DNA from: Cupriavidus sp. AU9028
Lineage (GTDB): Bacteria > Pseudomonadota > Gammaproteobacteria > Burkholderiales > Burkholderiaceae
NCBI RefSeq assembly: GCF_019795295.1
Contig: NZ_JAIMCG010000005.1
Span: forward strand, 62,001 to 126,000
DNA length: 64,000 nucleotides
Direction of reading: 5' to 3'
The position numbers and the translations under genes were made by a program. This document shows, in pieces, positions 37,660 through 60,611 of the stretch. Position 1 is the stretch's first letter, and each line of letters opens with the position of its first letter. Below the pieces are notes generated by a model. It saw only the letters and a list, made by a program, of their open reading frames with translations. It had not been told where the DNA came from and searched no databases.

Positions 37660-37675
37660 CGTACCCGTTTCTGCG
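37660..37675 (+). repeat. Dispersed iteron
   Basis: Exact CGTACCCGTTTCTGCG, 80 bp after the permease gene. Confidence 0.9.
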
Positions 37676-37725
37676 AAAAGCGGGATCGGGCCGGTGGCAA
37701 GGCGCCGCTGCGTGAGCCGCTCCGC

Positions 37726-37741
37726 CGTACCCGTTTCTGCG
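37726..37741 (+). repeat. Dispersed iteron
   Basis: Exact copy, 50 bp after the previous one, same orientation. Confidence 0.9.
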
Positions 37742-38239
37742 AGTGCGGTAAGCATTTATTTACTAAGATTCAGGCCCACCGCAGCGCTATGACGTTGCCC
37801 CGAAGCCATACAGAAGGATGAATTTGCGCGCATCCCCGAGGCAGGGGGTAGACAAACCGGGTCAAATGCACTGAACTAGAGGACAAGGGCGCTGCAGAGC
37901 GCCCTTTCTTGACTCTGGGCCGACAACGGTCCCCCAACGATAACGAGCGCGTCCGTCCTGCATTGGCCGGAACGCCCGCATAGACCGCCACCAGGCGGCG
38001 AGCGACGACAAGAAGAGCACGCACCAAGGCGTGCCACCGACAGGCGGAAAAAGAACAGTAGACGTAGCGCGAAAGTGTAGTGCCGGGGGTGTTGTACAAC
38101 GGGGAAAACTCATGATCTCAGGAGAAGTCCGGGCCCCGGCAGCGATGCCGGCAACGGAGACTGGCGCCCTTTGCATGTTTGACCTGCCGGCCGCGCCCGT
38201 GGCCGCCGCTCCAATCCACCTTCCAGTGGCGAGGCACCC
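37742..38239. promoter_or_regulatory. Non-coding region before the sigma-54 activator gene
   Basis: Part of a 660-bp gap. It holds an 8-bp hairpin AAGGGCGC/GCGCCCTT (37885-37906) followed by TTCTT, a possible terminator, and a perfect 10-bp palindrome GTTGTACAAC (38091-38100) about 140 bp before the activator gene. No gene is supported. Confidence 0.5.
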
Positions 38240-39739
38240 ATGATGCCGGCGCTGCGACCTGGAGGCGATTCCCAGCCGATACAGATCGACCCCACCTTGC
38301 TGCGGGAAGCGCACGAGCGCGCGGCAAGCAAGCCGCCCAGCGGGCATCACGTCCGGGAGAACGGGATGGAGCGACCGAGCAAGCCGCTGCCGCAGGCGGC
38401 CCAGGTGACCATCGTGGCGCGGCACCAGCAGCTGGCGCTGGACTGCGCGCAGCTCGGCCCGGAATGGGACGTGCGCCACGTTCAACAGTTGCGCGACCTT
38501 CCCCGCGTGCTGCGCAACGCCGGCCCCGGAGCGGCGCTACTGGACCTGCAGACCGACTACACGGACGCGGAATATGCGGTGCTGGAGCAGGCGCTGCAGT
38601 TGCCGCACATGGTCTGGGTGGCGGTGACGAGCGCCACGCGGCTGCGCGATGACGAGCGCGTGCGGCGCCTGATCCGCGACTACTGCGTCGACTACCTGCG
38701 CGCTCCCTTCGCCCAGTCCGATCTCATGTACACGCTGTCCCACGCCAGAGGCATGGCCGCCCTGCACGCCGAGCCGGGCCTGCGGGTGCGCGAGCGCGGT
38801 CCCATGATTGGCGAGTGCGAGGCCATGCGTGCCATGTTCCGATCGCTGGGCAAGGTCGCGACCAACGATGCGCCGGTCTTTATCTCGGGCGAGTCGGGTA
38901 CCGGAAAGGAACTGGCGGCGCAGGCCATCCACGAGGCGTCCAGTCGCGGCAAGGGCCCGTTCGTCGCGATCAACTGCGGGGCGATTCCGCCGCACCTGAT
39001 CCAGTCCGAATTGTTCGGCTACGAGAAGGGGGCGTTCACCGGCGCGCACCAGCGCAAGATCGGCTGGATCGAGCAGGCACAAGGCGGCACGCTGTTTCTC
39101 GACGAGATCGGTGACCTGCCGCTGGAGAGCCAGGTTGCGCTGCTGCGCTTCCTGCAGCAGGGCTCGATCACCCGGCTGGGCGGACACCAGCCGATTCCGC
39201 TGGATCTGCGCATCATCTCGGCGACCCATGTGGATCTGCTCGCCGCCCAGGCCGAGGGCCGCTTCCGTTCGGACCTGTACCACCGGCTCTGCGTGCTGAC
39301 GCTGTCGATACCGGCGCTGCGCGAGCGGGGCGAGGACATTCTGCTGCTGGCCAATGCAGTGCTCAGGGAGCACGCGCACGAGGCACATCGGCGCATTCGC
39401 GGCTTCTCCTCCTGTGCCACCCAGGCCATGATGCAGTACGCCTGGCCGGGCAACGTCCGCGAGTTGATCAACCGGGTGCGGCGGGCGATCGTGATGACGG
39501 ACAATCGCAAGATCACCGCAGAGGACCTGCAATTGCACGGGAGTGTGGAAGGACCCCGCAAGACGCTCGATGCCATCCGCGAAGAGGCCGAGCGCGAGGC
39601 GATCCGCTCGGTGATGGCCAGCCACGGCTTTCACGTCGTGCCGGCCGCGCGCGAGCTGAACGTGTCGCGAGTCACCCTCTACCGGCTGATGCACAAGCAC
39701 AATATCCGCGTGGAAGCCCAGCCCGCGCGCAGCAAGTAG
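38240..39739 (+). CDS. VpsR-like sigma-54 interaction-domain regulator
   Basis: A 499-residue enhancer-binding protein. Residues about 55-170 form a receiver-like domain with LLDLQ at the phosphorylation strand but without the usual acidic pair; then an AAA+ domain with Walker A GESGTGKE (about 216), the sigma-54 loop GAFTGA (about 266), Walker B GGTLFLDEIGDL (about 285) and the R-finger region; a Fis-type HTH ends the chain (VPAARELNVSRVTLYRLMHKH). The layout resembles VpsR and its Burkholderia relatives, c-di-GMP-responsive activators of EPS genes, so it may act on the EPS locus to the left; this is inference. Two tandem ATG codons follow GAGG. Confidence 0.88.
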   Translation: MMPALRPGGDSQPIQIDPTLLREAHERAASKPPSGHHVRENGMERPSKPLPQAAQVTIVARHQQLALDCAQLGPEWDVRHVQQLRDLPRVLRNAGPGAALLDLQTDYTDAEYAVLEQALQLPHMVWVAVTSATRLRDDERVRRLIRDYCVDYLRAPFAQSDLMYTLSHARGMAALHAEPGLRVRERGPMIGECEAMRAMFRSLGKVATNDAPVFISGESGTGKELAAQAIHEASSRGKGPFVAINCGAIPPHLIQSELFGYEKGAFTGAHQRKIGWIEQAQGGTLFLDEIGDLPLESQVALLRFLQQGSITRLGGHQPIPLDLRIISATHVDLLAAQAEGRFRSDLYHRLCVLTLSIPALRERGEDILLLANAVLREHAHEAHRRIRGFSSCATQAMMQYAWPGNVRELINRVRRAIVMTDNRKITAEDLQLHGSVEGPRKTLDAIREEAEREAIRSVMASHGFHVVPAARELNVSRVTLYRLMHKHNIRVEAQPARSK

Positions 39740-40448
39740 TCGCGGGGGATCTCACTGGCGCCGCGGCCGGCAGGTCGCGGGAGCGAGCCACTGAAACAGG
39801 GTTGCGCACCAGTGCTGCCTGGCGCTCGTCGTCTGCGCACGAGCCGTCCGTTTCTGCATGGCGAGCAACGGCGGGGATAGCAGCAGGGCGACGGTGCCGG
39901 GTGGCCGGATCAGACGCTGGGCGCGCCGGCGCGCCGTCATGCGGGCCGCGGGTTGACGCATGATGCCTCCTTCGCTGGCGGACGGATTGCCGGGCGCGAG
40001 CGGCGCACGGCTGTCCAGCCATGTCCGCAGAGTCCGTGCCAGCGCGGAAATCGCCTTTGAAAAGAGCGGGTTGCGCCCGCTTCTGGAAGCAGGCTCGCAA
40101 TTCCGCCTGCTGTGCTGCCCGGATCTGTCGCAGCGTTGTTACGCGCGATCGGAACGCTGCGAATGCGCGGCGGCCCTCGGCGCGATCGCGTCAGGTAACG
40201 CACAGGTGGCGGCACTCCGAGGCTGCGCACGATCGGTGCCGGAAAGCGCGGGAATCGGCCGTGCAGCAGCAGGCGGTGTGGTGCACCCGGCGCCCTGTCG
40301 AGGGCCACGCGGGGGGCGCGTAACGCAACCGATCACGGGGTGCATCCTGACCGCTGCGTTGGCACCCTGAACGGATGCCGGCCCGGCGATTACAGCAGCG
40401 AAACAGCGGTGATCGCCGCCTGCCGCCCGGGCGCAGAAACGGGTACGC
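39740..40448. other. Long stretch without a supported gene
   Basis: 709 bp. A 69-codon frame on the minus strand (39752-39961) and a 136-codon frame on the plus strand (39960-40370) are open, but neither has a ribosome-binding site or recognisable content. An exact iteron (40432-40447) is at the right end. Confidence 0.5.
40432..40447 (-). repeat. Dispersed iteron
   Basis: Exact consensus in minus orientation, one base after the stop codon of the lipoprotein gene. Confidence 0.9.
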
Positions 40449-40646
40449 CTACCGCGCCGGCGCTTCCGAGGCGTTCGGGGCGGTGGCGCCCCCGCCCGAG
40501 AGCGCCGGCTGGGCCGCGCTGCTGGTGCCGGCATCGCCGGAGATGGGCTTGGGACCGGGCTGGCTGCGGTCGCAGCCGGCGGCGGCCAGCATCATGGCCC
40601 CGCTGCAGGCGAGGGCGGCCAGACGAAATAGTGAAGTCGAGTGCAC
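40449..40646 (-). CDS. Small lipoprotein
   Basis: A 65-residue predicted lipoprotein of unknown function. It has a charged start, hydrophobic FRLAALACSGAMMLAAAGC and lipobox AAGC with the Cys at about residue 25, then a Ser/Pro/Gly/Ala-rich tail (SQPGPKPISGDAGTSSAAQ). The start is GTG at 40646 with a perfect AGGAGG four bases upstream, which decides it; longer frames upstream lack a site. Confidence 0.72.
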   Translation of the reverse strand: MHSTSLFRLAALACSGAMMLAAAGCDRSQPGPKPISGDAGTSSAAQPALSGGGATAPNASEAPAR

Positions 40647-40843
40647 GATGCCTCCTGAGGCGGTTGGAATGCCGAGCAACGGCGGGTTCTGATTGGGCCG
40701 CCCGACGCGCGCAGTGTTCCCTCGTTTTTGCGCCGGTTCGGCTTGGGGCGGGCGCCCTGGCGGGGTATGCTTGACGCTCCGCCACTGTAGCGCCGCTGCT
40801 TCCGGTCCTGGCGCAATGCAGCCAACGGCCGGCGCGGCGCCTG

Positions 40844-41908
40844 ATGCCGATGACCCGAGAATCCCCCGGAGGCTCGCCTGCGGACCGCGCCAGGCCGGGC
40901 CCCGCCTCTTCCTCTGCCGCCGCATCGGCCGCCGCATCGTCCGCGGCACCGTCGCGGCTTGCCCGGTTGCTGCCCGACCGCCACACGCTGCATCGGACCT
41001 ACAAGGTGCTGGCCGCCGCGCTCAGCTGCTGGTTCTTCCACCGCGCCGCGAGCAAGGGTGCCGCGCTGTCGTTCTATATGCTGTTTTCGCTTGCGCCGAT
41101 CCTGGTACTGGTGATTGCCATCGCCGGCCTGTTTTTCGGCGCGGAAGCGGCGCGCGGCGAGATTTTCGCCCAGCTCGAAGGCCTGGTCGGCGCACAGGGC
41201 GCCAATGCCATCCAGCAGCTGCTGGCGGCAACGCACCGCGCGGGCGGCAGCGGCACGGCAGCGCTGATCGCCACCGGCATCCTGATCGTGGGCGCCACCA
41301 CGGCCTTCGCGGAACTGAAGACGAGCCTGGACGAAATCTGGGAAGCGGACCAGCCCGAAGCCGCAGGTTGGCGCCGGCTGCTGCGCACGCGGCTGCTGTC
41401 GTTCAGCCTGGTGCTGGTGCTGGCGCTGATGCTGCTGGTCTCGCTGGTCGTCAACGCGGCGCTGGCGGCGGTGGAGCGCTTCTGGGGAGAAGTCTGGAAC
41501 CATTCCTGGCTTGCCCCGCTTGCCTCGGCCCTGTCCAGCGTCTTCTCGTTTGCCGTGGTCACCGCGCTGTTCGCCGTCGTCTTCAAGATGCTGCCGCGGG
41601 TCAAGGTCGCATGGCGGGATGTGGCGATGGGCGCCATCATTACCGCCGTACTGTTCTCGGTAGGCAAGCGGCTGATCGGCGTCTATCTGGGCAACAGCGC
41701 GGTTGCCTCGTCCTACGGGGCGGCCGGCTCGGTGGTGGCGCTGATGCTGTGGGTCTACTACTCGGCCCAGATCTTCTTTTTCGGCGCGGAGCTGACCCAT
41801 CAGTACGCGCTGCAGTTCGGCAGTCTGCGCGATCGCATGGCCGGCAGGCCGGTCGAAGGACAGGGCGAAAGACAGGGCGAAAGACAGGGCGAAAGACAGG
41901 CCGAATGA
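40844..41908 (+). CDS. YihY/BrkB family inner-membrane protein
   Basis: A 354-residue membrane protein of the YihY (formerly BrkB, RNase BN misnomer) family; its exact role is not known. About six membrane segments; SFYMLFSLAPILVLVIAIAG (about 77-96) and AAGSVVALMLWVYYSAQIFFFGAELTHQY (about 287-315) are the family hallmarks. The first 45 residues are an Ala/Ser-rich extension. The C-terminus ends in GERQ repeats from a 12-bp tandem DNA repeat (about 41868-41903). Weak ribosome-binding site; ATG at 40844 or 40850. Confidence 0.9.
   Translation: MPMTRESPGGSPADRARPGPASSSAAASAAASSAAPSRLARLLPDRHTLHRTYKVLAAALSCWFFHRAASKGAALSFYMLFSLAPILVLVIAIAGLFFGAEAARGEIFAQLEGLVGAQGANAIQQLLAATHRAGGSGTAALIATGILIVGATTAFAELKTSLDEIWEADQPEAAGWRRLLRTRLLSFSLVLVLALMLLVSLVVNAALAAVERFWGEVWNHSWLAPLASALSSVFSFAVVTALFAVVFKMLPRVKVAWRDVAMGAIITAVLFSVGKRLIGVYLGNSAVASSYGAAGSVVALMLWVYYSAQIFFFGAELTHQYALQFGSLRDRMAGRPVEGQGERQGERQGERQAE
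41868..41903 (+). repeat. 12-bp tandem repeat in the YihY-like gene
   Basis: About three copies of GGCGAAAGACAG give GERQGERQGERQ at the C-terminus. In-frame unit length means copy-number change would not break the gene. Confidence 0.85.
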
Positions 41909-42049
41909 CAGGCCGGACCACGCGACGGGCCGCTAACCGGTAGAATAGCGGCCCATTCCCCTCAGGCGACCCCCGGCCGCCCGCCTTGCGCGGCAGCGCG
42001 GTGTTGCCCATTGCGGGCCCTGTCATCCGCCAGCCGTTCCGATCCTACC

Positions 42050-43624
42050 GTGAGTTCGCTCGTATCCGAAATTGCGCGCCGTCGCACCTTCGCCATCATT
42101 TCCCACCCCGATGCCGGCAAGACGACGCTGACCGAAAAGCTGCTGTGGTTCGGCGGCGCCATCCAGGTCGCCGGCGAGGTGCGCGCCCGCAAGGCGGACC
42201 GCCACGCGACCTCCGACTGGATGGAGCTGGAAAAGCAGCGCGGCATCTCGGTGACTTCGTCGGTGATGCAGTTCCCGTACCGCGAGCACATCGTCAACCT
42301 GCTGGACACGCCGGGGCACGAGGACTTCTCGGAAGATACCTACCGCACCCTGACGGCGGTCGACTCGGCGGTGATGGTGATCGACTCGGTCAATGGCGTC
42401 GAGGCGCAGACCATCAAGCTGCTCAATGTCTGCCGCCTGCGCGATACGCCGATCCTGACCTTCATCAACAAGCTGGACCGCGAGGGCCGCTCGCCGATCG
42501 AGCTGCTGGACGAAATCGAGGACGTGCTGCAGATCCAGTGCGCGCCGATGACCTGGCCGATCGGCATGGGCAAGGCCTTCCGGGGCGTGTATCACCTGAT
42601 CGACGACCGCGTGCAGCTGTTCGATCCGCACGGCGAGAAGGGCACCGCCGCCATGGTGGACGGCCTGGACAATCCGGAACTCGACCGCATCCTGGGCTCG
42701 CAGGCCGAGGAGCTGCGCATCGAGATCGAACTGGTGCGCGGCGCTTCCCACGCCTTCGACAAGGAAGCGTTCCTGGCGGGCAAGCAGACGCCGGTGTACT
42801 TCGGCTCGGCGATCAACAACTTCGGCGTGCAATCGCTGCTGGACGCGCTGTGCGACCTGTCGCCGCCGCCGCAGCCGCGCAATACCGACAGCCGCCTGGT
42901 GGATCCGCAGGAGGGCAAGTTCACCGGCTTTGTCTTCAAGATCCAGGCCAACATGGACCCGCGCCACCGCGACCGCATCGCGTTCGTGCGGGTGTGCTCC
43001 GGCCGTTTCGAGCGCGGCATGAAGCTGCTGCACGTGGCGGCGGGCAAGACGGTGGCGATCAACAACGCCATCACGTTCATGGCGCAGGACCGCAATACCA
43101 CGGAGGAAGCCTACGCCGGCGACATCATCGGCGTGCCCAACCACGGCACGATTCGCCTGGGCGACGTATTCACCGAAGGCGAGTCGCTCAAGTTCACCGG
43201 CATTCCGTCCTTCGCACCGGAGTTCTTCCGGCGCGCGCGCCTGAATAACCCGCTGAAGGTCAAGCAGCTGCAGAAGGGCTTGCAGCAGCTGGCCGAAGAG
43301 GGCGCAACGCAGATGTTCCGGCCGCTCGCTTCCAACGAACTGGTGCTCGGCGCGGTCGGTATCCTGCAGTTCGACGTGGTGGCCCACCGCCTCGAGCACG
43401 AGTACGGGGTGGACGCCATCTTCGAATCGCACGAGTGTGCCACCGCGCGCTGGATCAAGGGACCCCCGGCGGAAGTGGAAAAGCTGATTGCCAAGGCAGG
43501 CCACAATGTCGCCCTCGATGGCGCGGGCGACCATGTCTATCTCGCGCCCAGCATGGTCAACCTGCGGCTGACGCAGGAGCGCTTCCCGGATCTGCAGTTC
43601 CTGGAAACGCGGGAGATCGTCTGA
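42050..43624 (+). CDS. prfC: Peptide chain release factor 3
   Basis: GTPase that recycles RF1 and RF2 from the ribosome after termination. The 524-residue product begins [20 protein letters not shown] when read from GTG 42050, the normal family N-terminus; a TTG at 42011 would extend it without support. G1 SHPDAGKTT (about 18-26), switch [18 protein letters not shown] (about 86-101) and G4 [10 protein letters not shown] (about 141) are intact, followed by domains II and III to near the usual 529-residue length. A single-copy housekeeping gene on this replicon supports chromid status. Confidence 0.96.
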
Positions 43625-43634
43625 TTCTGCCCCG

Positions 43635-43665: not shown

Positions 43666-43752
43666 TCCCGTGCAGCCGTTTCCGCTGCCCGCGCCGCCCG
43701 CTCGATGGCGATCGTCATGGCAAGGGCGGCATGTCGTCCCACCGCCCTTCTC

Positions 43753-45033: not shown

Positions 45034-45408
45034 GCGCCCGCTGGCAACGCGGCGAGCGTGTCGACATCGCTCGCCGCTCTCGGCAACGCCGTCGCGCGCG
45101 CCGTCCAGGCGGGGGCGTACCCGTTTCTGCGTGCCGGCCGCGTGCCAGGGGAGATCCGCGACGCCTTGGTTGTCCCCCCGGATTTCCGCTATTTCATGCC
45201 AAGGTCACATCATTTTGCGACCTTCTTCTCGCATCCCCCACCTAAAACGTTGAAACCTTTGCTTCGATGGCAGGTCCTGAATGTATTGGGACATTTGATT
45301 CTGTAGGCCAGGCTCCGACAAGACGTCGGTGCTTCTCGGGCAGACCCCGCCACGCCAGCGTGCCATAACGGGGAATGCCCGCGGCTCGCGGGAAGGAGCA
45401 AAACATCA
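45034..45408. promoter_or_regulatory. Promoter region of the NAGGN osmolyte operon
   Basis: 375 bp, AT-richer between 45180 and 45300, with one exact iteron at 45116-45131. The promoter of the osmolyte operon must lie here; no sequence box was clear enough to assign. Confidence 0.55.
45116..45131 (+). repeat. Dispersed iteron
   Basis: Exact consensus, 83 bp after the MFS gene. Confidence 0.9.
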
Positions 45409-47190
45409 ATGTGCGGTATTGCAGGAGAAATACGGTTTGACCAGGCGTCGGCCAATGTCCACGCCGTTTTCGATATGGCCAGCGCCCAGTCGGGCCGGGG
45501 CCCGGACGGCGAAGGACTCTACGCGTCCGGACGCCGCGCCTTCGGCCATCGCCGGCTGCGGATCATGGATCTGTCCGAGCGGGCCCACCAGCCCTTCGTC
45601 GACAACGTGCTGGGCCTGGGCATCGTCTTCAACGGCGCGGTGTACAACCACCACGAGTTGCGCGAGGAACTGAGCGCCAAGGGCTATGTCTTCTCGTCCA
45701 CCGGCGACACCGAGGTGATACTCAAGGCCTGGCATGCCTGGGGTCCGGCCGCGCTGGACCGCCTGATGGGCATGTTCGCCTTTGCACTGTGGGAGCGCGA
45801 CAGCGGCATCACGCACCTGGTGCGCGACCGGCTCGGCATCAAGCCGCTCTACTACAGCCTGGACGCGCGGCGCCTGCGCTTTGCCTCGACGCTGCCGGCG
45901 CTGCTGGTCGGCGGCGATATCGACAAGACGCTGGATCCGGTCGCCCTGCACTTCTACATGAGCCTGCATGCGGTCGTGCCGGCGCCGCACACGATGCTCA
46001 AGGGCGTGCGCAAGCTGCCGCCGGCCTCGCACATGACCGTGCACCCGGACGGACGCACCGAAACCCGCACCTGGTGGCAGCTGACCTTCCCGCACGACGC
46101 CGCCGACGAGGCCCGCAGCTTCGAGGAGTGGCGCGACATGACGCTGGCCTCGCTGCGCGACGCGGTGCGCCTGCGCACCGTGGCCGACGTGCCGGTCGGC
46201 GTGCTGCTGTCCGGCGGTGTCGATTCCAGTCTGATTACCGGATTGCTCGCAGAAACGGGTACGCCCAACCTGCGCACCTATGCGATCGGCTTCGAGGCAG
46301 CCGGCGGCGAAGCGGGCGACGAATTCCATTACTCGGATCTGGTGGCCCGCCATTTCGGCACCCAGCACGAGAAGATGATGATTCCCGCGGGCGATCTGCT
46401 GGCGTCGCTGCCCGCCGCCATCGACGCAATGAGCGAACCGATGGTCAGCCACGACTGCGTGGCGTTCTACCTGCTGTCCGCCGCGGTTGCGCGCCACAGC
46501 CGCGTGGTGCAGAGCGGTCAGGGCGCCGACGAGGTGTTCGGCGGCTACCACTGGTATCCGGCGCTGGCCGAGAACCGCGATGCGGACGGCGGCGTCGCCG
46601 CCTACCGCTCGGTGTTCTTCGACCGCAGCCACTCGGAGATGGCGGAACTGCTGGCGCCGCAGTGGCTGGCCGACGATCCCGCTGGCCGCTTCGTCGCCGA
46701 GCATTTCGCCATGCCGGGCGCCGACAACGCCATCGACCGGGCGCTGCGGCTGGATACCACCGTGATGCTGGTCGACGATCCGGTCAAGCGCGTGGACAAC
46801 ATGACCATGGCGCATGCGCTGGAAGCACGCGTGCCGTTCCTGGACCACCGGCTGGTGGAGCTGGCCGCGCGCATGCCGGCGCGTCACAAGATTGCGCAGG
46901 GCGGCAAGCACGTGCTGAAGGAAGCGGCGCGCCAGGTGATTCCCGCCGAGGTGATCGACCGTCCCAAGGGCTATTTCCCGGTGCCGGCGCTGAAGTACCT
47001 GCGCGGCCCGTTCCTCGACTACGTGCGCGGCTGGATCGACAGCGACGCGGCGCGCCAGCGCGGGCTGTACCGGCCCGGCGTGGTCGACACCATGCTGAAG
47101 GACCCGGACGCCCATATCACCCCGCTCAAGGGCTCGAAGGTATGGCAGATCGCCCTGCTTGAAGCGTGGCTGCAGGCGCGCGGGATCTGA
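45409..47190 (+). CDS. N-acetylglutaminylglutamine amidotransferase (asparagine-synthase-like)
   Basis: Last step of synthesis of the osmolyte N-acetylglutaminylglutamine amide: it amidates the dipeptide using glutamine and ATP. The 593-residue protein starts MCGIAG with Cys2 as the glutaminase nucleophile, the N-terminal Ntn domain reaching to about 200, and the synthetase domain with PP-loop SGGVDS at 268-273. Identity as the NAGGN enzyme rather than asparagine synthetase rests on the two following genes (GNAT/ATP-grasp synthetase and M42 peptidase), the known three-gene set. AAGGAG lies 11-12 bases before the ATG. An exact iteron (46248-46263) is embedded in the coding sequence just after the PP-loop. 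Confidence 0.93.
   Translation: MCGIAGEIRFDQASANVHAVFDMASAQSGRGPDGEGLYASGRRAFGHRRLRIMDLSERAHQPFVDNVLGLGIVFNGAVYNHHELREELSAKGYVFSSTGDTEVILKAWHAWGPAALDRLMGMFAFALWERDSGITHLVRDRLGIKPLYYSLDARRLRFASTLPALLVGGDIDKTLDPVALHFYMSLHAVVPAPHTMLKGVRKLPPASHMTVHPDGRTETRTWWQLTFPHDAADEARSFEEWRDMTLASLRDAVRLRTVADVPVGVLLSGGVDSSLITGLLAETGTPNLRTYAIGFEAAGGEAGDEFHYSDLVARHFGTQHEKMMIPAGDLLASLPAAIDAMSEPMVSHDCVAFYLLSAAVARHSRVVQSGQGADEVFGGYHWYPALAENRDADGGVAAYRSVFFDRSHSEMAELLAPQWLADDPAGRFVAEHFAMPGADNAIDRALRLDTTVMLVDDPVKRVDNMTMAHALEARVPFLDHRLVELAARMPARHKIAQGGKHVLKEAARQVIPAEVIDRPKGYFPVPALKYLRGPFLDYVRGWIDSDAARQRGLYRPGVVDTMLKDPDAHITPLKGSKVWQIALLEAWLQARGI
46248..46263 (-). repeat. Dispersed iteron inside the amidotransferase gene
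   Basis: Exact consensus in minus orientation; read as LAETGT in the gene frame. Confidence 0.9.
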
Positions 47191-51785: not shown

Positions 51786-53684
<1,899 letters not shown>

Positions 53685-53882: not shown

Positions 53883-55334
53883 GTGAGCATGCCCGATTTC
53901 GACATGGTGCTGTTCGGCGGCACCGGTGACCTGGCCCGACGCAAGCTGCTTCCGGCCTTGTTCGACGCCCATCGCGCCGGGCAGTTGCATCCCGCGGCGC
54001 GCATCATCGCGACGGGTAGCCATCCGATGTCCACCGAGGACTATGTGGCCTCGCTGGAGCAAGGCACGCGGGCGCGGGCGGAAGGGGCGACGCCGCAGTC
54101 GTGGGCCGAGTTCATTTCGCGCATCAGCTACGTGCAGGCCGACGCGAATGTGCCGGCTCACTTCGACGTGCTTGCCGAGCGAGTGCATGCCCGCTCCCCC
54201 GAGGTGCTGGTCTGCTACCTGGCCACCGCGCCGCATATCTTCGTCCCCATCTGCGAACAACTGGCGCGCACCGGACTGAACCATCCGAACGTGCGCATCG
54301 TGCTGGAGAAACCGCTGGGGCACGACCTGGAGTCGTCCGATGCGATCAACTCCGCGGTGGCGCGCTATTTCGGCGAGGAGCAGATCTACCGCATCGATCA
54401 CTACCTGGGCAAGGAGTCGGTGCAGAACCTGATGGCGATCCGCTTCGGCAATGCGCTGTTCGAGCCCCTGTGGCGCCGCGAGTGGGTCCAGGACGTGCAG
54501 ATCACCATTGCGGAGGAGCTGGGCGTGGAGTCGCGCGGCGACTTCTACGACCGCACCGGCGCGCTGCGCGACATGGTGCAGAACCACCTGCTGCAACTGC
54601 TGTGCATGGTCGCGATGGAGCCGCCGGCCAGCTTGTCCGAGGACGCGATCCGGGACGAGAAGATCAAGATCCTGAAGGCGCTCAAGCCGATCACGCCACA
54701 GGAAGTCGCGGAAAAGACCGTGCGTGGACAGTATCGCGCCGGCGCGGTGGGCGGCCAGCCGGTGCCGGGTTATCTGGAGGAGAAGGGCATCGCCCCGGAC
54801 AGCCGCACCGAGACCTTCGTCGCCATCAAGGCCGAGATCGCCAACTGGCGCTGGGCCGGCGTGCCCTTCTACCTGCGCACCGGCAAGCGGATGCAGTCGC
54901 GCGTGGCCGAGATCGTGATCCACTTCCGCGACGTGCCGCACGCGATCTTTCCGCGCCCCGTCACGGTGATGCCGCAGAACCGGCTGGTGATCCGGCTGCA
55001 GCCCGAGGAGAGCATCCGGCTGTATTTCCTCGTCAAGCAGCCGGGCGACACCGTGGCGCTGACGCCGACCTCGCTCGACCTGGACTTCGGCAACTCGTTC
55101 AAGGGCCGCCGTGCGGGTGCCTATGAACGGCTGCTGCTTGACGTGATCCGCGGCAAGCTGGGGCTGTTCGTGCGCCGCGACGAGCAGGCGCAGGCCTGGC
55201 GCTGGGTCGAGCCGATCCTCGATACCTGGGCCGAGGGCGGGTCTCCCAGGCCGTACACTGCGGGAACATGGGGCCCCGCGGCATCGACCGCGCTGCTCTC
55301 GCGCGACGATGCGCTGTGGTACGAGGAGATCTAG
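53883..55334 (+). CDS. zwf: Glucose-6-phosphate 1-dehydrogenase
   Basis: Oxidises glucose-6-phosphate to 6-phosphogluconolactone with NAD(P). A 483-residue enzyme: FGGTGDLARRKLLPALF (coenzyme fingerprint, about 10-26), LEKPLGHDLESS (about 142), and the substrate site RIDHYLGKESVQNLM (about 171-185). GTG 53883 is used because AGGAG lies 6 bases before it; ATG 53889 would be 12 bases off. Although the same frame is open far upstream, that part is antisense to edd. First gene of a run with pgl, glk and a two-component system. Confidence 0.95.
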   Translation: MSMPDFDMVLFGGTGDLARRKLLPALFDAHRAGQLHPAARIIATGSHPMSTEDYVASLEQGTRARAEGATPQSWAEFISRISYVQADANVPAHFDVLAERVHARSPEVLVCYLATAPHIFVPICEQLARTGLNHPNVRIVLEKPLGHDLESSDAINSAVARYFGEEQIYRIDHYLGKESVQNLMAIRFGNALFEPLWRREWVQDVQITIAEELGVESRGDFYDRTGALRDMVQNHLLQLLCMVAMEPPASLSEDAIRDEKIKILKALKPITPQEVAEKTVRGQYRAGAVGGQPVPGYLEEKGIAPDSRTETFVAIKAEIANWRWAGVPFYLRTGKRMQSRVAEIVIHFRDVPHAIFPRPVTVMPQNRLVIRLQPEESIRLYFLVKQPGDTVALTPTSLDLDFGNSFKGRRAGAYERLLLDVIRGKLGLFVRRDEQAQAWRWVEPILDTWAEGGSPRPYTAGTWGPAASTALLSRDDALWYEEI

Positions 55335-55374
55335 CGAGGGCCTGCCCTCTCCATCCGTCCAAGTGAGTTTGCCG

Positions 55375-56055
55375 ATGCGACGCTTCGAATATCCCACGGC
55401 AATCGACCAGGCCGAGGCCCTGGCGACGGCCGTTGCCCATGCCCTGGACACGCTGTTGGCCGAGCGCGGCAGCGCGGTGCTGGCGGTCTCCGGCGGACGC
55501 TCGCCGATCCCGATGTTCGAGCGGCTGCGCTATCGGCCGCTGCGATGGGATGCCATTACGGTGACGCTGGTCGACGAGCGCGTGGTGCCGCCGGAGCACG
55601 AGGACAGCAACGCGCGGCTGGTGCGCGAGCATCTGCTGCGCGACGCCGCGGCGGCGGCGGGTTTCGTGCCGCTGATCCAGGACGCGCAGGAGGCGGCGGC
55701 ACCCGAGCAGGCGCTGCGCCGGCTGGCCAGCGGCTACCGGCAGGCGGATGTCGCCGTGCTGGGCATGGGCGAGGACGGTCATACCGCCTCGCTGTTCGCC
55801 GACGCGCCCGAGCTGGGCGACGCGCTGGCGCAAGCGGCGCCCGGGTACCTGGTGACCCACCCCGGGCAGGCGCCCCATGCGCGCGTCACGCTGAACCTGG
55901 CTGCGCTGCTGGCCACGGAACGGGTATTCCTGGCCTTTGCCGGCCCGGCCAAGGCGGCCGTGTTCGAGCAGGCCATCGCGACGCCCACGCCCGCGCTGCC
56001 AGTCGGGCTGATCGCCGGCCGGCACCGGCACGGCTTTGATGTCTATAGCGCCTGA
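55375..56055 (+). CDS. pgl: 6-phosphogluconolactonase
   Basis: Hydrolyses 6-phosphogluconolactone to 6-phosphogluconate. A 226-residue DevB/SOL-type protein: LAVSGGRSPIPMFERL (about 41-56), TLVDERVVPPEHEDSN (about 64-79) and GMGEDGHTASLFAD (about 128-141). Starts 40 bp after zwf. ATG 55375 used; GTG 55363 is possible. Neither has a strong ribosome-binding site, so translation may depend on the upstream gene. Confidence 0.94.
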   Translation: MRRFEYPTAIDQAEALATAVAHALDTLLAERGSAVLAVSGGRSPIPMFERLRYRPLRWDAITVTLVDERVVPPEHEDSNARLVREHLLRDAAAAAGFVPLIQDAQEAAAPEQALRRLASGYRQADVAVLGMGEDGHTASLFADAPELGDALAQAAPGYLVTHPGQAPHARVTLNLAALLATERVFLAFAGPAKAAVFEQAIATPTPALPVGLIAGRHRHGFDVYSA

Positions 56056-56085
56056 CAACCCGCTGACACGCTCCAGATCCGATCG

Positions 56086-57072
56086 ATGACAGACTATCCC
56101 CGCCTGCTCGCCGATGTCGGCGGCACCAATGTCCGCTTCGCCCTGCAGCACGGACCAGCACAGTTCGGCGACGTGACGGCACTGAAGGTGGCCGACTTCC
56201 CCTCGCTGGAAGACGCGATGCGGCACTACCTGTCGCAGCTTCCCGGACCGGCACCGCGCCATGCCGCGATCGGGCTTGCCAACCCCGTTACGGGCGATCA
56301 CGTCAAGCTGACCAACCACGCCTGGGCCTTCTCGATCGAAGGCATGCGGCAATCGCTCGGCCTGCGCACGCTGCTCGCGCTCAACGACTTCACCTCGCTG
56401 GCGCTGGCGCTGCCCTACCTGCGGACCGATGAACTGGCGCCGCTGCGCGAAGGGCAGGCCATCCACGGTGCGCCGCTGGCACTGCTCGGTCCCGGCACGG
56501 GATTGGGCGTATCGGGACTGGTGCCCGGCCGGGGCGGCGCGGCGCCCATCGCGCTGGCAGGCGAGGGCGGACATATCGAGCTGATGCCGCAGACCGACGA
56601 CGAGTGGCTGGCATGGCGCGCGGCCCGGCGCGAGCATGGCCGTGTCTCCGCGGAGCGGCTGCTGTCAGGTGCGGGGCTGACCTGCATCCACGCCGCGCTC
56701 CTCGCAGAAATGGGTACGCAAGCGGATACGCCCACGTCCGCCCGGCTCAGTCCTGCCGAGGTGGCCGAAGGCGCGGTGCGCGGCGGCGATCCCGTGTGCA
56801 GGCGCGCGTTCGAAGCGTTCTGCGGACTGCTCGGCAGCATGGCGGGCAATCTTGCCCTGGTGCTGGGCGCGCGCGGCGGCGTCTATATCGGGGGCGGCAT
56901 CGTGCCGCGCTATGTCGACGCAGTGCGGGCGTCCTCCTTCGCGCAGCGCTTCGTCGACAAGGGCCGCATGCGCGAGTATCTGGAACCGGTGCCGGTGCAT
57001 GTCATCACGGCCAGCCACCCCGCGCTGCCGGGGCTGGCCCATGCGCTGCACGAGGCAATTGGCGATGCGTGA
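56086..57072 (+). CDS. glk: Glucokinase
   Basis: ATP-dependent phosphorylation of glucose, feeding the same pathway. A 328-residue proteobacterial-type glucokinase: LLADVGGTNVRFAL (phosphate loop, about 6-19), LNDFTSLALALPYL (about 99, catalytic Asp), GPGTGLGVSGLVPG (about 138) and GEGGHIELMP (about 158). 30 bp after pgl. A one-mismatch iteron (56703-56718) lies inside the gene. Confidence 0.95.
   Translation: MTDYPRLLADVGGTNVRFALQHGPAQFGDVTALKVADFPSLEDAMRHYLSQLPGPAPRHAAIGLANPVTGDHVKLTNHAWAFSIEGMRQSLGLRTLLALNDFTSLALALPYLRTDELAPLREGQAIHGAPLALLGPGTGLGVSGLVPGRGGAAPIALAGEGGHIELMPQTDDEWLAWRAARREHGRVSAERLLSGAGLTCIHAALLAEMGTQADTPTSARLSPAEVAEGAVRGGDPVCRRAFEAFCGLLGSMAGNLALVLGARGGVYIGGGIVPRYVDAVRASSFAQRFVDKGRMREYLEPVPVHVITASHPALPGLAHALHEAIGDA
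56703..56718 (-). repeat. Dispersed iteron inside glk (one mismatch)
   Basis: CGCAGAAATGGGTACG; the same single change is present in the origin copy at 34947. Read as LAEMGT in the gene frame. Confidence 0.8.
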
Positions 57073-57102
57073 GGCGGCACGCCCGCGCAGCAAGGAGTGG
57101 CG

Positions 57103-57810
57103 ATGCGCGTTCTGCTGATCGAGGATGACGCCATGATCGGCGAGTCGGTGCGCCTGGGGCTGCGCCAGGAGAACTTCGCCGTGGACTGGGTACGGGACGG
57201 CGAGGCGGGCCTGGCGGCTGCCCGGATGCCGGAGCACGACATCGTGCTGCTGGACCTGGGGCTGCCGCGGCGCTCGGGGCTGGACGTGCTGGCGGGCCTG
57301 CGCGGAGGTGGCAGCCGTACGCCGGTGCTGATCCTGACCGCGCGCGATGCGGTGTCCGACCGCGTCGCCGGGCTGAACGCCGGCGCGGACGATTACCTGG
57401 TCAAGCCCTTCGATCTGCAGGAACTCATTGCACGCATCCACGCGCTGGCCCGTCGTGCGCAAGGCCGGGCCGAGCCACTGGTGCGCTATGGCGCGGTATG
57501 CCTGAATCCCGCCACCCGAGATGTCACGCTGGACGGTCAGCCGGTGCGGCTGTCGGCCCGCGAGTACGCACTGCTGGCCGCGCTGCTGTCGCGGCCCGGG
57601 CAGGTCTGGTCGGTCGCGCAGTTGCAGGAGAAGCTGTATGGCTGGGATGACGAGGTGGGCAGCAATACCGTCGAGGTCTACGTGCACGGCCTGCGCAAGA
57701 AGCTCGGCTCGGGCCTGATCCGCAATATCCGCGGGGTCGGCTATGTGTGCCCGCGCCTGGACGGTGCGGGCGGCGCAGGTGACACCGGTGACGAGGAGGG
57801 CCGGGCGTGA
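57103..57810 (+). CDS. OmpR-family response regulator (GltR-like position)
   Basis: A 235-residue regulator. Receiver: acidic pair in LLIEDDAMIG (E8-D9-D10), phospho-Asp in IVLLDLGLP (about 51), Thr and Lys in LILTARDA and LVKPFDL (about 101). C-terminal winged helix (RLSAREYALLAALLSRPGQV; GSNTVEVYVHGLRKKLG; IRNIRGVGYV). AAGGAG stands 5-6 bases before ATG 57103. 30 bp after glk and coupled to the kinase gene. By analogy with the edd-glk-gltRS order of pseudomonads it may control glucose uptake or the pathway genes; the stimulus is not visible. Confidence 0.92.
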   Translation: MRVLLIEDDAMIGESVRLGLRQENFAVDWVRDGEAGLAAARMPEHDIVLLDLGLPRRSGLDVLAGLRGGGSRTPVLILTARDAVSDRVAGLNAGADDYLVKPFDLQELIARIHALARRAQGRAEPLVRYGAVCLNPATRDVTLDGQPVRLSAREYALLAALLSRPGQVWSVAQLQEKLYGWDDEVGSNTVEVYVHGLRKKLGSGLIRNIRGVGYVCPRLDGAGGAGDTGDEEGRA

Positions 57811-59231
57811 TGCGTTCGATCCAGCGAACGCTGCTGTGGTGGCTGGCGCTCGGCCTGCTGGCCGGCATCGCGGTGGCAACGGCCCTGATCTACGGCCAGG
57901 CGCGCCAGGAAGCCAACGCCCTGTTCGATTACCAGATGAAGCAGATGGCCGCCGCCTTGCCCAGCCAGTTCAGCGGACCGATGCTGCCGCCGCTGCCGCC
58001 TCCCGGCACCGCGCTGGACCCGGGGCGCGATTCGCTGTTTGGCTCCGGCGAGGAGGTGGTCATCCATATCTGGGATGGCAACGGGCGCAGCCTCTATCTG
58101 TCGCACTCGCGCCCGGCGCTGCCGCCGCGCGCGGAGCTGGGCTTTTCCAATGTGACGACGGACCACGGCGAATTCCGCATCTATAGCGTACAGCTGGGCC
58201 CGGCGGTGGTGCAGATCGCGCAACCGTTGAGCGCCCGCAGCGAGGTGGCGGCACGCATGGCGCTGCGCACCGTGGCGCCACTGCTTCTGCTGCTGCCGCT
58301 GCTTGGCTGGCTGGTATGGATCGCGGTCGGGCGAGGACTGCGGCCGCTGCGCGAAATCGCCCGGCAGGTCGGCGAGCGCGACGCCAATGCGCTCGCGCCG
58401 CTGGCATTGCGCCGCATGCCCGAGGAGATCGCGCCGCTGACGGAGGCGCTGGACAAGCTGCTGGCGCGGCTGGCAAAGGCCATCGAAACGCAGCGCGGCT
58501 TCGTCGCCGACGCCGCCCATGCCCTGCGGACCCCGCTGACGGCGCTGCAATTGCAGGCGCAACTGGTGGAGCGCGCCGACTCGGAGCCGGCGCGGCGCGA
58601 GGCGCTGGGCCGCCTGCGCGAGGGGCTGGAGCGCCTGACCCATCTGGTCGCGCAATTGCTGACGCTGGCGCGGCAGGAGCCAAACGCGGCGCCCGTGGCG
58701 CAACGGGTGTTGGATCTGCAGCCGCTGTGCGCGGCGACCGTGGCCGAGATGAGCCAGGCGGCGCTGGACGCGGGCATCGACCTCGGACTGGAAGCGGCGG
58801 TGCCGCCCGGCAGCGATCGTGCCGAGGGCGTCTATCTGGTGCGGGGAGATGGCGACGCCCTGCGCATCCTGCTGACGAACCTGATCGACAACGCGCTGCG
58901 CTACACAGCGTCTGGCGCGAGGGTGGATGTCCGGCTCGGGTTTGCTGATGTCGGCTCGCGGCACGGCCAGGGGCAGGGGCCTGGCGTGGTGCTGACCGTC
59001 GCGGACAATGGGCCCGGCATTCCGGCGGACCAGCGCGAGCGCGTGCTGGACCGCTTCTATCGCCCGCCCGATGCGCCCAGTGGCGGCAGCGGCCTGGGGC
59101 TGGCCATCGTCGCCGAGATTGCGCAGGCGCATGGCGCCGCCATTTCACTGGAAGACAATGCGCCCGGTTTGCGCGTGCGCATCGTCTTTCCTGCCGCGAG
59201 CGTACCCGTTTCTGCGGACGAGGCGGCCTAG
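57810..59231 (+). CDS. Sensor histidine kinase (QseC/GltS-like)
   Basis: A 473-residue inner-membrane kinase: first membrane segment (about 9-28), periplasmic domain of some 120 residues, second segment (APLLLLLPLLGWLVWIAVG, about 156), HAMP-like linker, H-box FVADAAHALRTPLTALQLQA (His about 237), N-box LTNLIDNALRYT (about 356), G1 DNGPGIP and G2 GGSGLGLAIV. Starts with overlapping TGATG at the end of the regulator gene. The last codons contain an exact iteron (59201-59216), read as SVPVSAD. Its stop overlaps that of the convergent dehydrogenase gene by 4 bp. Confidence 0.92.
   Translation: MRSIQRTLLWWLALGLLAGIAVATALIYGQARQEANALFDYQMKQMAAALPSQFSGPMLPPLPPPGTALDPGRDSLFGSGEEVVIHIWDGNGRSLYLSHSRPALPPRAELGFSNVTTDHGEFRIYSVQLGPAVVQIAQPLSARSEVAARMALRTVAPLLLLLPLLGWLVWIAVGRGLRPLREIARQVGERDANALAPLALRRMPEEIAPLTEALDKLLARLAKAIETQRGFVADAAHALRTPLTALQLQAQLVERADSEPARREALGRLREGLERLTHLVAQLLTLARQEPNAAPVAQRVLDLQPLCAATVAEMSQAALDAGIDLGLEAAVPPGSDRAEGVYLVRGDGDALRILLTNLIDNALRYTASGARVDVRLGFADVGSRHGQGQGPGVVLTVADNGPGIPADQRERVLDRFYRPPDAPSGGSGLGLAIVAEIAQAHGAAISLEDNAPGLRVRIVFPAASVPVSADEAA
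59201..59216 (+). repeat. Dispersed iteron inside the histidine kinase gene
   Basis: Exact consensus, five codons before the stop. Confidence 0.9.
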
Positions 59232-60163
59232 CCGACCGGGGTTTGCACCGGCTCGCCGGCGAAGTGACGGCGTGCGTTCTCCAGGAACAGCCGCACCGTC
59301 GCATCGATGGCCTCGGGAGACCAGCCGGCGACATGCGGCGTCAGCACGAGGTTGGGGCAGTCAAGCAGTTCCAGCGGCGGGGCCGGTTCCGATTCGTAGA
59401 CATCCAGGCCGGCACCGCCGATCGCACCGGTGCGCAGCGCCACCGCGAGCGCCGCGGTGTCGATCACGCTGCCGCGCGCGATATTGACGATGAAGCCCTG
59501 CGGTCCCAGCGCCGCCAGCACTGCGGCATCGACCATATGGCGGGTACCGGCGCCGCCCGGCGTGGCGACGATCAGGAAGTCGCTCCACTGTGCAAGCGAC
59601 AGGGCGTCCTCGAAGTAGCGATACGACACATCGGTGCGGGCACTGCGGCTGTGATAGCCGATCTCCAGGTCGAAGGCCGCCGCGCGCGCCGCGATGCGCC
59701 GGCCGATCGTGCCAAGACCCAGCACGCCGAGGCGCTTGCCGGCGATGCCCGGGCGCAGCGGCAGCGCGGTGCGCCACTGGCCCGCGCGGGTGGCGCGGTC
59801 CAGATCCGGCAGCGCGCGCACGGCGCCGAGCAGCAGCGCCATCGCGTGATCGGCCACGGCGCTGTCGTTGGTGCCCGCGCCATTGGCGACGACGATGCCG
59901 CGCGCGCGCGCATGCTGCACGTCGATATTCTCGTACCCGGCGCCCAGCGCGCACACCAGTTCGAGCGCCGGCATCGCGTCCATTTCCGCCGCGGTCAGGC
60001 CGATGCTGCCGATGGTCAGCACGGCGCGAATGGCGGCGCCGTCGGACGCGATGCGCGCGGCGCGTTGCGCGTCGTCGGGCGCGTACAGCACGTCGTAATG
60101 CTCGGCAATCTGGGCGAGGTGGGGTTCGGAGACGGGATTGAGGATCAGCAGCTTGGGCGTCAT
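59228..60163 (-). CDS. D-2-hydroxyacid dehydrogenase (glyoxylate/hydroxypyruvate reductase-like)
   Basis: A 311-residue NAD(P)-dependent oxidoreductase that interconverts 2-keto and D-2-hydroxy acids. GVLGLGTIGRRIAARAAAF (about 146-164) is the dinucleotide fold; catalytic Arg in NIARGSVIDT (about 229), Glu in DVYESEPAPP (about 258) and His in LTPHVAGWSPEA (about 277) are all present. Substrate may be glyoxylate, hydroxypyruvate or 2-ketogluconate; nearness to the gluconate-related genes makes the last worth considering. Weak ribosome-binding site before the ATG. Confidence 0.9.
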   Translation of the reverse strand: MTPKLLILNPVSEPHLAQIAEHYDVLYAPDDAQRAARIASDGAAIRAVLTIGSIGLTAAEMDAMPALELVCALGAGYENIDVQHARARGIVVANGAGTNDSAVADHAMALLLGAVRALPDLDRATRAGQWRTALPLRPGIAGKRLGVLGLGTIGRRIAARAAAFDLEIGYHSRSARTDVSYRYFEDALSLAQWSDFLIVATPGGAGTRHMVDAAVLAALGPQGFIVNIARGSVIDTAALAVALRTGAIGGAGLDVYESEPAPPLELLDCPNLVLTPHVAGWSPEAIDATVRLFLENARRHFAGEPVQTPVG

Positions 60164-60295
60164 GGTGCGGTAGGAAACAGCGAGGCCGGTATGGCCGGGC
60201 CTGGTCAGAGGCAGGAACGTTGTTCAGGGTCGGTGTGCGACCGTGGGTGACATTGTAGGGGTGCGCGGCGCGTGCGGTTGCGGCGTTGGGGCGTA

Positions 60296-60311
60296 CGCAG
60301 AAACGGGTACG
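60296..60311 (-). repeat. Dispersed iteron
   Basis: Exact consensus in minus orientation, left of the REP-like element. Confidence 0.9.
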
Positions 60312-60358
60312 CCTGGCAGAGGCAGTGTCCGGATTTTGGGATGGCGGGGGCTGGAGTG

Positions 60359-60488
60359 CCCTCTCCCCCGGCCCCTCTCCGCCGGCCCCTCTCCCCCAGG
60401 CGGGCGAGGGGAAAAGACCGGCGGTGGTCATCACCCTGGTGGTTTGCTCCCCTCTCCCGCGGGGCGGGAGAGGGGCCGGGGGAGAGGG
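60359..60488. repeat. REP-like element 3
   Basis: 130 bp with inverted ends (CCCTCTCCCCCGGCCCC left, GGGGCCGGGGGAGAGGG right) and an inner CCCCTCTCCCGC/GCGGGAGAGGGG palindrome, same build as the elements at 12024 and 51515. Confidence 0.8.
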
Positions 60489-60517
60489 CAGCCACGCGAG
60501 AACCCACCAATCCCGCA

Positions 60518-60611
60518 CGCAGAAACGGGTACGCCTATGCCCAACCCTGTCCCGCCTCCGTCACGCAGAAACGGGTACGCAAACGATGGACTGCCCGCAG
60601 AAACGGGTACG
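60518..60611 (-). repeat. Cluster of three iterons
   Basis: Exact consensus copies in minus orientation at 60518-60533, 60564-60579 and 60596-60611, the densest group outside the origin, 36 bp from the end of fumC. Confidence 0.9.

What the first reader, a model, noticed from the sequence alone, without database searches (positions are those of the whole stretch)
37660..60611. Origin iterons scattered through 25 kb of ordinary genes, on one side of the origin
Eleven 16-bp copies (ten exact, one with a single mismatch) of the repA-origin iteron occur at 37660, 37726, 40432, 45116, 46248, 56703, 59201, 60296, 60518, 60564 and 60596. I saw none in the 33.9 kb left of repA. Chance cannot explain exact 16-mers at this rate. 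They could titrate RepA, pair with the origin in handcuffing, act as a chromosome-replication checkpoint comparable in role to crtS, or be relics of an expanded origin. The right-sided bias and the terminal cluster at 60.5 kb suggest the array continues beyond the window.
Basis: partly seen in the sequence, partly recalled or inferred. Interest (0 to 1): 0.85.

Follow-up and report, generated by a model that had tools for sequence, protein, structure and literature searches.

The report
Initiator-binding sites scattered around second-chromosome origin
Around the start point of their second chromosome, Cupriavidus and Ralstonia bacteria keep some 14-20 extra copies of the DNA tag that their replication starter protein probably recognises, most likely as a sponge that stops the chromosome from being copied twice in one round.

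Summary
The repeats are real. The window lies on the second replicon (chromid) of a Cupriavidus. All 31 copies with at most one mismatch in its 4.68-Mb assembly lie on one contig, 43 kb left to 80 kb right of the repA origin. Copies occur in 60 of 60 sampled genus genomes, 26-41 in 57. In five complete chromids 84 of 88 dispersed copies lie within 150 kb of the origin. Across four replicons 52 of 64 are intergenic; many keep the same neighbours between Cupriavidus species, and one outlasts its flanks in 11 Ralstonia-type loci. One-sidedness does not generalise. Two classes exist: five degenerate iterons at 22/22/22/23-bp spacing in 49 of 50 related origins, and near-perfect dispersed copies. 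A separate palindrome is the probable parS. Best explanation: selected RepA control sites, duplicated within minutes of initiation, that titrate or handcuff RepA against re-initiation. Binding is inferred, not shown. Precedents: Vibrio cholerae chrII and, as a table-legend remark, Burkholderia. New variant of a known kind.

The parts
32842..33936 (-). repA, RepA_C-family replication initiator, 364 aa
   Evidence: Pfam PF04796 E 2.8e-32; 92-98% identical in the named Cupriavidus loci
31468..32124 (-). parA
   Evidence: Pfam AAA_31/CbiA; NCBIfam ParA_partition just under its cut-off
30424..31464 (-). parB
   Evidence: Pfam HTH_ParB; TIGR00180 above cut-off
31262..31277 (.). candidate parS palindrome CTTTCAGCGCTGAAAG (copy 1, inside the parB reading frame)
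   Evidence: two copies at matching places in 4 of 4 chromids
32135..32150 (.). candidate parS palindrome (copy 2, between repA and parA)
33991..34006 (-). exact iteron about 55 bp upstream of the repA start; possible autoregulation site
   Evidence: 34 of 50 related loci have a <=1-mismatch copy within 200 bp of repA
34279..34383 (+). phased origin core: five degenerate iterons (34279, 34301, 34323, 34345, 34368; 1-3 mismatches)
   Evidence: five at 22/22/22/23-bp spacing in 49 of 50 related loci, four in the other (L066) at the <=4-mismatch cut
34409..34417 (+). DnaA-box-like TTGTCCACA next to the core; the only <=1-mismatch box in the window (2.87 expected by chance, so weak by itself)
34446..35493 (+). 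irregular origin array: 13 sites with <=2 mismatches, 7 of them exact
37660..37675 (+). dispersed site, downstream of the xanthine/uracil permease gene
   Evidence: sites downstream of the orthologous permease in all four genomes compared
37726..37741 (+). dispersed site, same intergenic region
40432..40447 (-). dispersed site, intergenic
   Evidence: 32 of the 36 Cupriavidus-type loci that reach so far have a site in the matching orientation 6.4-9.4 kb upstream of repA (counted); the ortholog test did not pair it
45116..45131 (+). dispersed site, intergenic
   Evidence: matching site in HN-2 and CH34
46248..46263 (-). dispersed site inside an asparagine-synthase-like gene
   Evidence: no partner found
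56703..56718 (-). dispersed site (1 mismatch) inside a glucokinase gene
   Evidence: at the same aligned codon in HN-2 (exact) and CH34 (1 mismatch)
59201..59216 (+). dispersed site at the 3' end of a sensor-kinase gene
60296..60311 (-). dispersed site, intergenic cluster
   Evidence: CH34 has two sites beside the ortholog of the left neighbour
60518..60533 (-). dispersed site, same intergenic cluster
60564..60579 (-). dispersed site, same intergenic cluster
60596..60611 (-). dispersed site, same intergenic cluster
17318..17333 (-). weak left-side candidate (2 mismatches); could be chance

Best explanation
The 16-mer is the recognition core of the chromid initiator RepA. The origin has five weak, helically phased iterons where RepA opens the DNA. 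The 13 irregular copies beside them, one copy at the repA promoter and some 14-20 near-consensus copies, mostly within 150 kb on both sides, are control sites. They bind RepA without starting replication. When the origin fires, forks duplicate these sites within minutes (in this genome the farthest known, at 80 kb, after 2.7 min at an assumed 500 nt/s), so free RepA falls and more RepA-bridged (handcuffed) pairs can form; the weak core iterons lose RepA first and re-initiation is blocked until the cell has grown. Shown: position, replicon specificity, two sequence classes, conservation, signs of selection. Inferred: RepA binding, the affinity order, the inhibitory effect, and whether titration or handcuffing dominates.
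For: Replicon-specific and centred on the origin: 31 of 31 copies at <=1 mismatch on C38; in five complete chromids of 2.5-2.8 Mb, 84 of 88 dispersed copies within 150 kb, about 10 expected. Selection: 52 of 64 dispersed copies intergenic where 13-17% is non-coding; in 11 Ralstonia-type loci the copy near +3.5 kb keeps 15 of 16 columns while its flanks change; one copy at the same codon of one gene in three species; ortholog adjacency HN-2/CH34 p 4e-8, C38/HN-2 p 0.002, C38/CH34 p 0.013. Two classes: core 2 of 249 exact and T3->A in 149 of 250, against dispersed 159 of 223 exact at the <=2-mismatch cut and T3->A in 0 of 215 rows. Precedent: in V. cholerae five distal iterons and a 39-mer bind RctB and lower the copy number of a chrII-origin plasmid (PMC3937223 passages). 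Theory: for titration alone, only near-origin placement prevents early re-initiation at high growth rates (PMC9640692 passages). Parallel: seven of ten g11 (Burkholderia-type) genomes with a different iteron show a second cluster 133-162 kb from the origin.
Against: No binding or copy-number data. A minimal titration simulation of mine did not distinguish near-origin, evenly spread and at-origin placement, so dispersal itself is unexplained: in it, an array stacked at the origin works as well. Ralstonia shares with Cupriavidus only the permease-downstream sites in the test; adjacency with Ralstonia is not significant (p 0.27-0.61). In the Fisher tests both neighbours of one cluster count, so the rows are not independent. 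In the gene with the shared in-gene copy the encoded residues are similar too, so protein constraint may help to keep it. One of four Ralstonia-type sites tested is only modestly conserved (57 of 800 windows as good) and two are absent from one or two loci. Four of 88 copies lie 214-750 kb from the origin, and exact copies exist on plasmid-sized contigs of three genomes. RepA's fold could not be predicted and no solved homolog was found.
Confidence: 0.6

Rival explanations
1. Origin-domain organiser: RepA bound at dispersed sites bridges them to each other and to the origin, folding about 150-250 kb into an origin domain that helps segregation, comparable in role to matS/MatP (recalled) but built by the initiator.
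For: A bounded domain on both sides of the origin in complete chromids, many single or paired sites rather than one array, and dispersal that my titration model does not require.
Against: No contact-map data; a ParABS system with its own conserved palindrome is present for segregation; no even spacing.
Confidence: 0.15
2. Transcriptional regulon: RepA represses or activates neighbouring genes through these sites, tying expression to replication.
For: Most sites are intergenic and one lies about 55 bp upstream of repA.
Against: Divergent, promoter-rich gaps are under-used (9 of 52 intergenic sites against about 20 expected) and convergent gaps hold 14 of 52 (about 7 expected); my sums from the base shares, sites of one cluster counted apart. 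Genes near the window's sites are diverse (RF3, transporter, asparagine synthase, G6PD, glucokinase, sensor kinase); 12 of 64 sites lie inside genes.
Confidence: 0.08
3. Replication checkpoint of the crtS type, read by forks or by the other chromosome.
For: Sites are presumably bound by the chromid initiator and are passed by forks soon after initiation.
Against: No <=1-mismatch copy outside C38 in this assembly; in C. necator A5-1 the one copy on the dnaA-bearing contig lies in a block that I read by eye as phage-like. A checkpoint of another sequence is not excluded; recalled crtS is not an iteron match either.
Confidence: 0.05
4. Relics of an expanded origin or of a spreading repeat, without present function.
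For: Near-origin copies are the densest.
Against: Exact copies kept where flanks have changed; little information in the flanks beyond about -3 to +18, so no longer mobile unit; conserved neighbours between Cupriavidus species.
Confidence: 0.04
5. ParB centromere sites (parS).
For: Clustered around the origin, as parS sites often are (recalled).
Against: Not palindromic; a separate perfect palindrome lies at two matching places beside parAB/repA in 4 of 4 chromids.
Confidence: 0.02

Closest known systems
V. cholerae chrII distal RctB sites (Baek and Chattoraj 2014, PMC3937223; passages read)
   Same: Copies of origin iterons outside the origin of a plasmid-type second chromosome, close to the origin and replicated early; shown there to bind the initiator and inhibit initiation.
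   Different: [quoted passage not shown] here some 14-20 sites on both sides, an initiator of the RepA_C family (not compared with RctB here), an unrelated motif, and presence in two genera. Later ChIP-seq found RctB at 8 regions of Chr1 and 6 of Chr2 (PMC11711613 passage).
Burkholderia cenocepacia c2 distal iterons (Du et al. 2016, PMC4948915; passages, including a supporting-table legend)
   Same: repA-type second chromosome with a second iteron cluster 140 kb from the origin, and others 'throughout the genome'. One search shows a distal cluster in seven of ten g11 genomes.
   Different: Different iteron sequence, few dispersed copies at the cut used, mostly one distal cluster; no function proposed in the passages read.
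E. coli datA and DnaA boxes enriched near oriC (Olivi et al. 2025, PMC12371093; outline, abstract and passages)
   Same: Initiator boxes concentrated near the origin, seen as favourable for titration.
   Different: DnaA boxes occur chromosome-wide and act with a nucleotide switch; here most copies are origin-proximal, and I know of no such switch for RepA.
Origin iterons of Cupriavidus/Ralstonia second replicons (CH34 PMC2864759; NH9 PMC6379261; R. mannitolilytica PMC10986519; passages)
   Same: The same repeat upstream of repA was listed as putative RepA-binding iterons (at least 12, 20 and 12 copies).
   Different: Only origin copies are mentioned in the passages read; neither the dispersed copies nor the two classes.

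Membership tests
Iteron-type replication origin | Adjacent gene for a plasmid-type initiator | tested here: met
   RepA_C, E 2.8e-32
Iteron-type replication origin | Direct repeats phased with the DNA helix next to the initiator gene | tested here: met
   Five repeats at 22/22/22/23 bp in the window and in 49 of 50 related loci
Iteron-type replication origin | Initiator binds the repeats | not testable with these tools
   Needs gel shift or ChIP-seq
Initiator-titration locus (datA-like; V. cholerae chrII distal sites) | Origin-type binding sites outside the origin, on the same replicon | tested here: met
Initiator-titration locus (datA-like; V. cholerae chrII distal sites) | Origin-proximal, early replicated | tested here: met
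   84 of 88 within 150 kb in five complete chromids; timing itself not measured
Initiator-titration locus (datA-like; V. cholerae chrII distal sites) | Extra copies lower origin activity | not testable with these tools
   Needs copy-number assays
crtS checkpoint | Conserved site on the main chromosome | tested here: not met
   None at <=1 mismatch off C38; isolated copy in A5-1 in a block read as phage-like. Only this 16-mer was tested
parS centromere | Palindromic ParB site | tested here: not met
   16-mer is not palindromic; separate conserved palindrome
Mobile or REP-type repeat | Repeat unit longer than the site, or genome-wide spread | tested here: not met
   Flank information ends near -3/+18; one contig only
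Macrodomain sites (matS-like) | Sites bound by a protein that organises a chromosomal domain | not testable with these tools
   Needs Hi-C and ChIP-seq

The most novel reading that the evidence does not exclude
The chromid carries a purpose-built fork-distance timer: two classes of iteron, weak phased ones that fire and consensus ones kept by selection around the origin, so that fork passage through the flanking 150 kb, rather than initiator synthesis alone, closes the initiation window; the same RepA-bridged sites also fold the region into an origin domain. [quoted passage not shown]
Probability: 0.2. Interest if true: 0.85.

Novelty: new variant of a known kind. Interest (0 to 1): 0.62.

Why it matters
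How plasmid-derived second chromosomes limit initiation to once per cycle is, as far as I know, worked out mainly in Vibrio. Here an independent lineage, including strains such as C. metallidurans CH34, has an origin-centred set of conserved sites that can be deleted or moved one by one. It would allow a direct test of the modelling claim that titration sites alone prevent re-initiation only if they lie near the origin, and of whether initiators also organise chromosome regions. The sequence-defined classes (T3->A, preceding G) give concrete mutants to make.

Tried and rejected
Tried without gain. (1) A minimal titration model: identical stable cycles for all placements; it supports no placement, only the duplication-time figure. 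(2) Structure prediction of RepA: not accepted, twice; a sequence search of solved structures found nothing. (3) G023, the genus outlier with 4 copies at 97% completeness: first thought to be a natural RepA-loss experiment. It has no close RepA (best 38% over part), its four copies lie in 20-kb stretches without genes like the origin-proximal chromid genes, and it has no close relative of the origin-proximal RF3 (prfC) gene (best 31%), so the chromid region itself is missing from the genome or its assembly; dropped as evidence. G012 (54% complete, 4 copies) and G048 (78%, 10 copies) also lack RepA and are partial. (4) First gene calls on C38 were wrong-stranded in places (repA overlapped by an antisense call; 76.5% coding); replaced by calls with a codon table trained on HN-2. 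(5) The script stopped with an error; only its printed part is used, the rest was redone.

Considered and rejected: parS, mobile repeat, relic, crtS, transcriptional regulon (see rivals). Detection bias: dispersed sites are found by similarity, so their exactness is partly built in. Core iterons were located by similarity (<=4 mismatches) and spacing, a looser cut than the <=2 or <=1 used for dispersed sites; the absence of T3->A in dispersed sites (allowed at 1 mismatch) against 149 of 250 in the core is less affected. The 215 rows join two sets that share about six sites of HN-2 and UNC404CL21Col. The core work used 50 of the 54 loci; L095-L098 (distant or truncated) were left out. For one search, origin-array copies were removed before counting: 12 of 28 (CH34), 10 of 28 (MJ1), 14 of 30 (EM10), 14 of 34 (HN-2 C1), 16 of 34 (UYPR2.512 C2); off-chromid copies (3 in HN-2, 4 in UYPR2.512) were also left out. 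Place lists were cut short, so positions there were seen for a part of the genomes only.
Full report
What was checked. The window is G000:C38:62001-126000, part of a 264,410-base contig of a 4.68-Mb assembly in 42 contigs, 94.6% complete. RepA is 96-98% identical to that of C. cauae, C. gilardii and Cupriavidus sp. UYMMa02A, so I take the organism for a Cupriavidus and the replicon for its repA-parA-parB second chromosome (chromid).

Genome-wide distribution. At 0-1 mismatch the genome holds 31 copies, all on C38 between 53,391 and 176,269; the reversed-pattern control gives none. At 2 mismatches only two copies lie off C38; up to 3 mismatches the totals are 80 for the pattern and 111 for the control, so 3-mismatch matches carry no signal. 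The origin lies at C38 96.0-97.5 kb, so the set spans -43 to +80 kb.

Relatives. All 60 sampled genus genomes hold copies; 57 hold 26-41, the controls at most 3 per genome. The three low ones are G012 and G048, which are incomplete, and G023, where the origin-proximal part of the chromid appears to be absent. In a family sample 37 of 150 genomes match: 14 of the own genus, 13 of genus g24 with 26-34 copies each (Ralstonia by inference: two named Ralstonia genomes hold 27 and 30), one of g4 with 14, and nine genomes of other genera with a single copy. In the complete chromids of CH34, C. campinensis MJ1, Cupriavidus sp. EM10, C. pinatubonensis HN-2 (its record calls this replicon chromosome 1) and C. 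necator UYPR2.512 the dispersed copies number 16, 18, 16, 20 and 18, of which 16, 17, 16, 17 and 18 lie within 150 kb of the origin, where about two each are expected. Sites occur on both sides: dense from 2.7 to about 35 kb on the permease side, sparser but farther on the parAB side.

Selection. With my own gene calls, 14 of 17 (C38), 14 of 17 (HN-2), 10 of 14 (Ralstonia sp. UNC404CL21Col) and 14 of 16 (CH34) dispersed copies are intergenic, in DNA that is 13-17% non-coding. Many stand beside the same genes: downstream of the permease in all four genomes; window 45116 matches HN-2 and CH34; window 60296-60611 matches CH34; a site in the glucokinase gene lies at the same aligned codon in three species, where the residues are similar too. 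Other C38 sites found no partner in that test (53391, 102432, 108248, 127543, 175856-176254; 121201 has HN-2 sites beside, not inside, its ortholog), although blastn places sites of two further genus genomes at the 127.5- and 176.2-kb loci (L109, L111). Ortholog adjacency is significant between Cupriavidus species (p 4e-8, 0.002, 0.013; the two neighbours of a cluster both count) and not with Ralstonia. In 11 Ralstonia-type loci the copy 3.5 kb downstream of the repA start keeps 15 of 16 columns invariant; the bases beside it differ almost throughout, and over the aligned stretch of 400 bp on either side the mean pairwise identity is 0.73; of 827 windows one is as conserved. Of three other sites tested there, two are among the most conserved windows (2 of 827, 7 of 809) and one only modestly so (57 of 800); one locus lacks the third site and two lack the fourth.

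Sidedness. The C38 segment at +63 to +83 kb corresponds, inverted, to -72 to -195 kb in HN-2, and +63 to +103 kb to -76 to -119 kb in CH34. The site at C38 165,433 (+69 kb) has its partners at -107 kb and -86 kb. An inversion across the origin thus changed the side, while this site stayed at 69-107 kb from the origin. C38 is a draft contig, so misassembly is not excluded.

Two classes. The window and 49 of 50 related origins carry five iterons at 22/22/22/23-bp spacing close to repA, with recurring deviations; L066 shows four at the <=4-mismatch cut. Of 249 scored core iterons 2, 44, 93, 99 and 11 have 0, 1, 2, 3 and 4 mismatches; dispersed sites (searched to 2 mismatches) have 0, 1 and 2 in 159, 45 and 19 of 223. 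T3->A occurs in 149 of 250 core iterons, 13 of 591 irregular-array sites and 0 of 215 dispersed rows; a G before the site stands in 92% of the dispersed sites of the four genomes and 71% of the irregular array, while C is commonest there in the core. In the window 9 of 10 exact dispersed copies have that G. Dispersed sites are thus nearest to the consensus. That this means the tightest binding is inference.

Function. The set is not parS: CTTTCAGCGCTGAAAG lies at two matching places beside the repA-par genes in 4 of 4 chromids. It is not placed as a promoter regulon: divergent gaps are under-used. Titration or handcuffing fits the position, replicon specificity and strong consensus, and has an experimental precedent in V. 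cholerae (PMC3937223) and a theoretical reason in PMC9640692. At an assumed 500 nt/s all C38 copies are duplicated within 2.7 min, half within 0.9 min. My simple model did not show that dispersal matters, so why the sites are spread rather than stacked remains open; an origin domain is the main rival.

Parallel in Burkholderia-type genomes. With the c2 iteron of PMC4948915, 51 of 120 family genomes match, none of the ten own-genus and none of the nine g24 genomes. Of the ten g11 genomes, seven (G146, G119, G161, G128, G089, G105, G154) list an origin cluster and a distal pair or triple 133-162 kb away, on the same side relative to array orientation (read by me). G069 and G137 have copies near 2.47 Mb that may be the same after wrap-around (contig lengths not looked up), and G168 is fragmented. 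That g11 is Burkholderia is inferred.

Literature. Origin copies were noted before (PMC2864759, PMC6379261, PMC10986519; passages). I found no mention of dispersed copies in Cupriavidus or Ralstonia in searches, which cover open-licence papers only and gave partly capped listings; of 11 papers I read passages, for two also the outline and for one the reference list, and no supplements.

Exceptions. Exact copies lie on plasmid-sized contigs of HN-2 (689 kb), UYPR2.512 (388 kb) and G038 (425 kb). A5-1 has, on its 4.69-Mb repA contig, exact copies at 0.57, 1.61 and 2.21 Mb (origin at 4.28 Mb) and one on the dnaA-bearing contig. They are unexplained and argue against a perfectly strict rule.

None changes the odds.

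Noticed in passing
window 31262-31277 and 32135-32150: Perfect palindrome CTTTCAGCGCTGAAAG at two matching places beside repA-parA-parB in 4 of 4 chromids: probable parS of the Cupriavidus/Ralstonia chromid.
   Followed up: partly
window 60357-60380 / 60467-60490: A 24-nt perfect G+C-rich inverted repeat, REP-like, inside the intergenic region that holds the 60.3-60.6 kb site cluster.
   Followed up: no
C38 +63 to +103 kb relative to the origin: Inversion across the origin relative to HN-2 (part of the segment) and CH34.
   Followed up: partly
L160 (C. necator A5-1, contig C8): Exact iteron copy inside a gene in a block that looks phage-like by eye, on the contig that carries dnaA.
   Followed up: partly
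L099, L104, L105: Exact iteron copies on plasmid-sized contigs of HN-2, G038 and UYPR2.512; function or origin unknown.
   Followed up: partly
Genome G023 (same genus): 7.7-Mb genome, 97% complete, without a close chromid RepA or the origin-proximal prfC: a Cupriavidus lacking this chromid region, or an incomplete assembly.
   Followed up: partly
Genomes G146, G119, G161, G128, G089, G105, G154 (g11): Second iteron cluster 133-162 kb from the origin cluster, on the same side relative to the array.
   Followed up: partly
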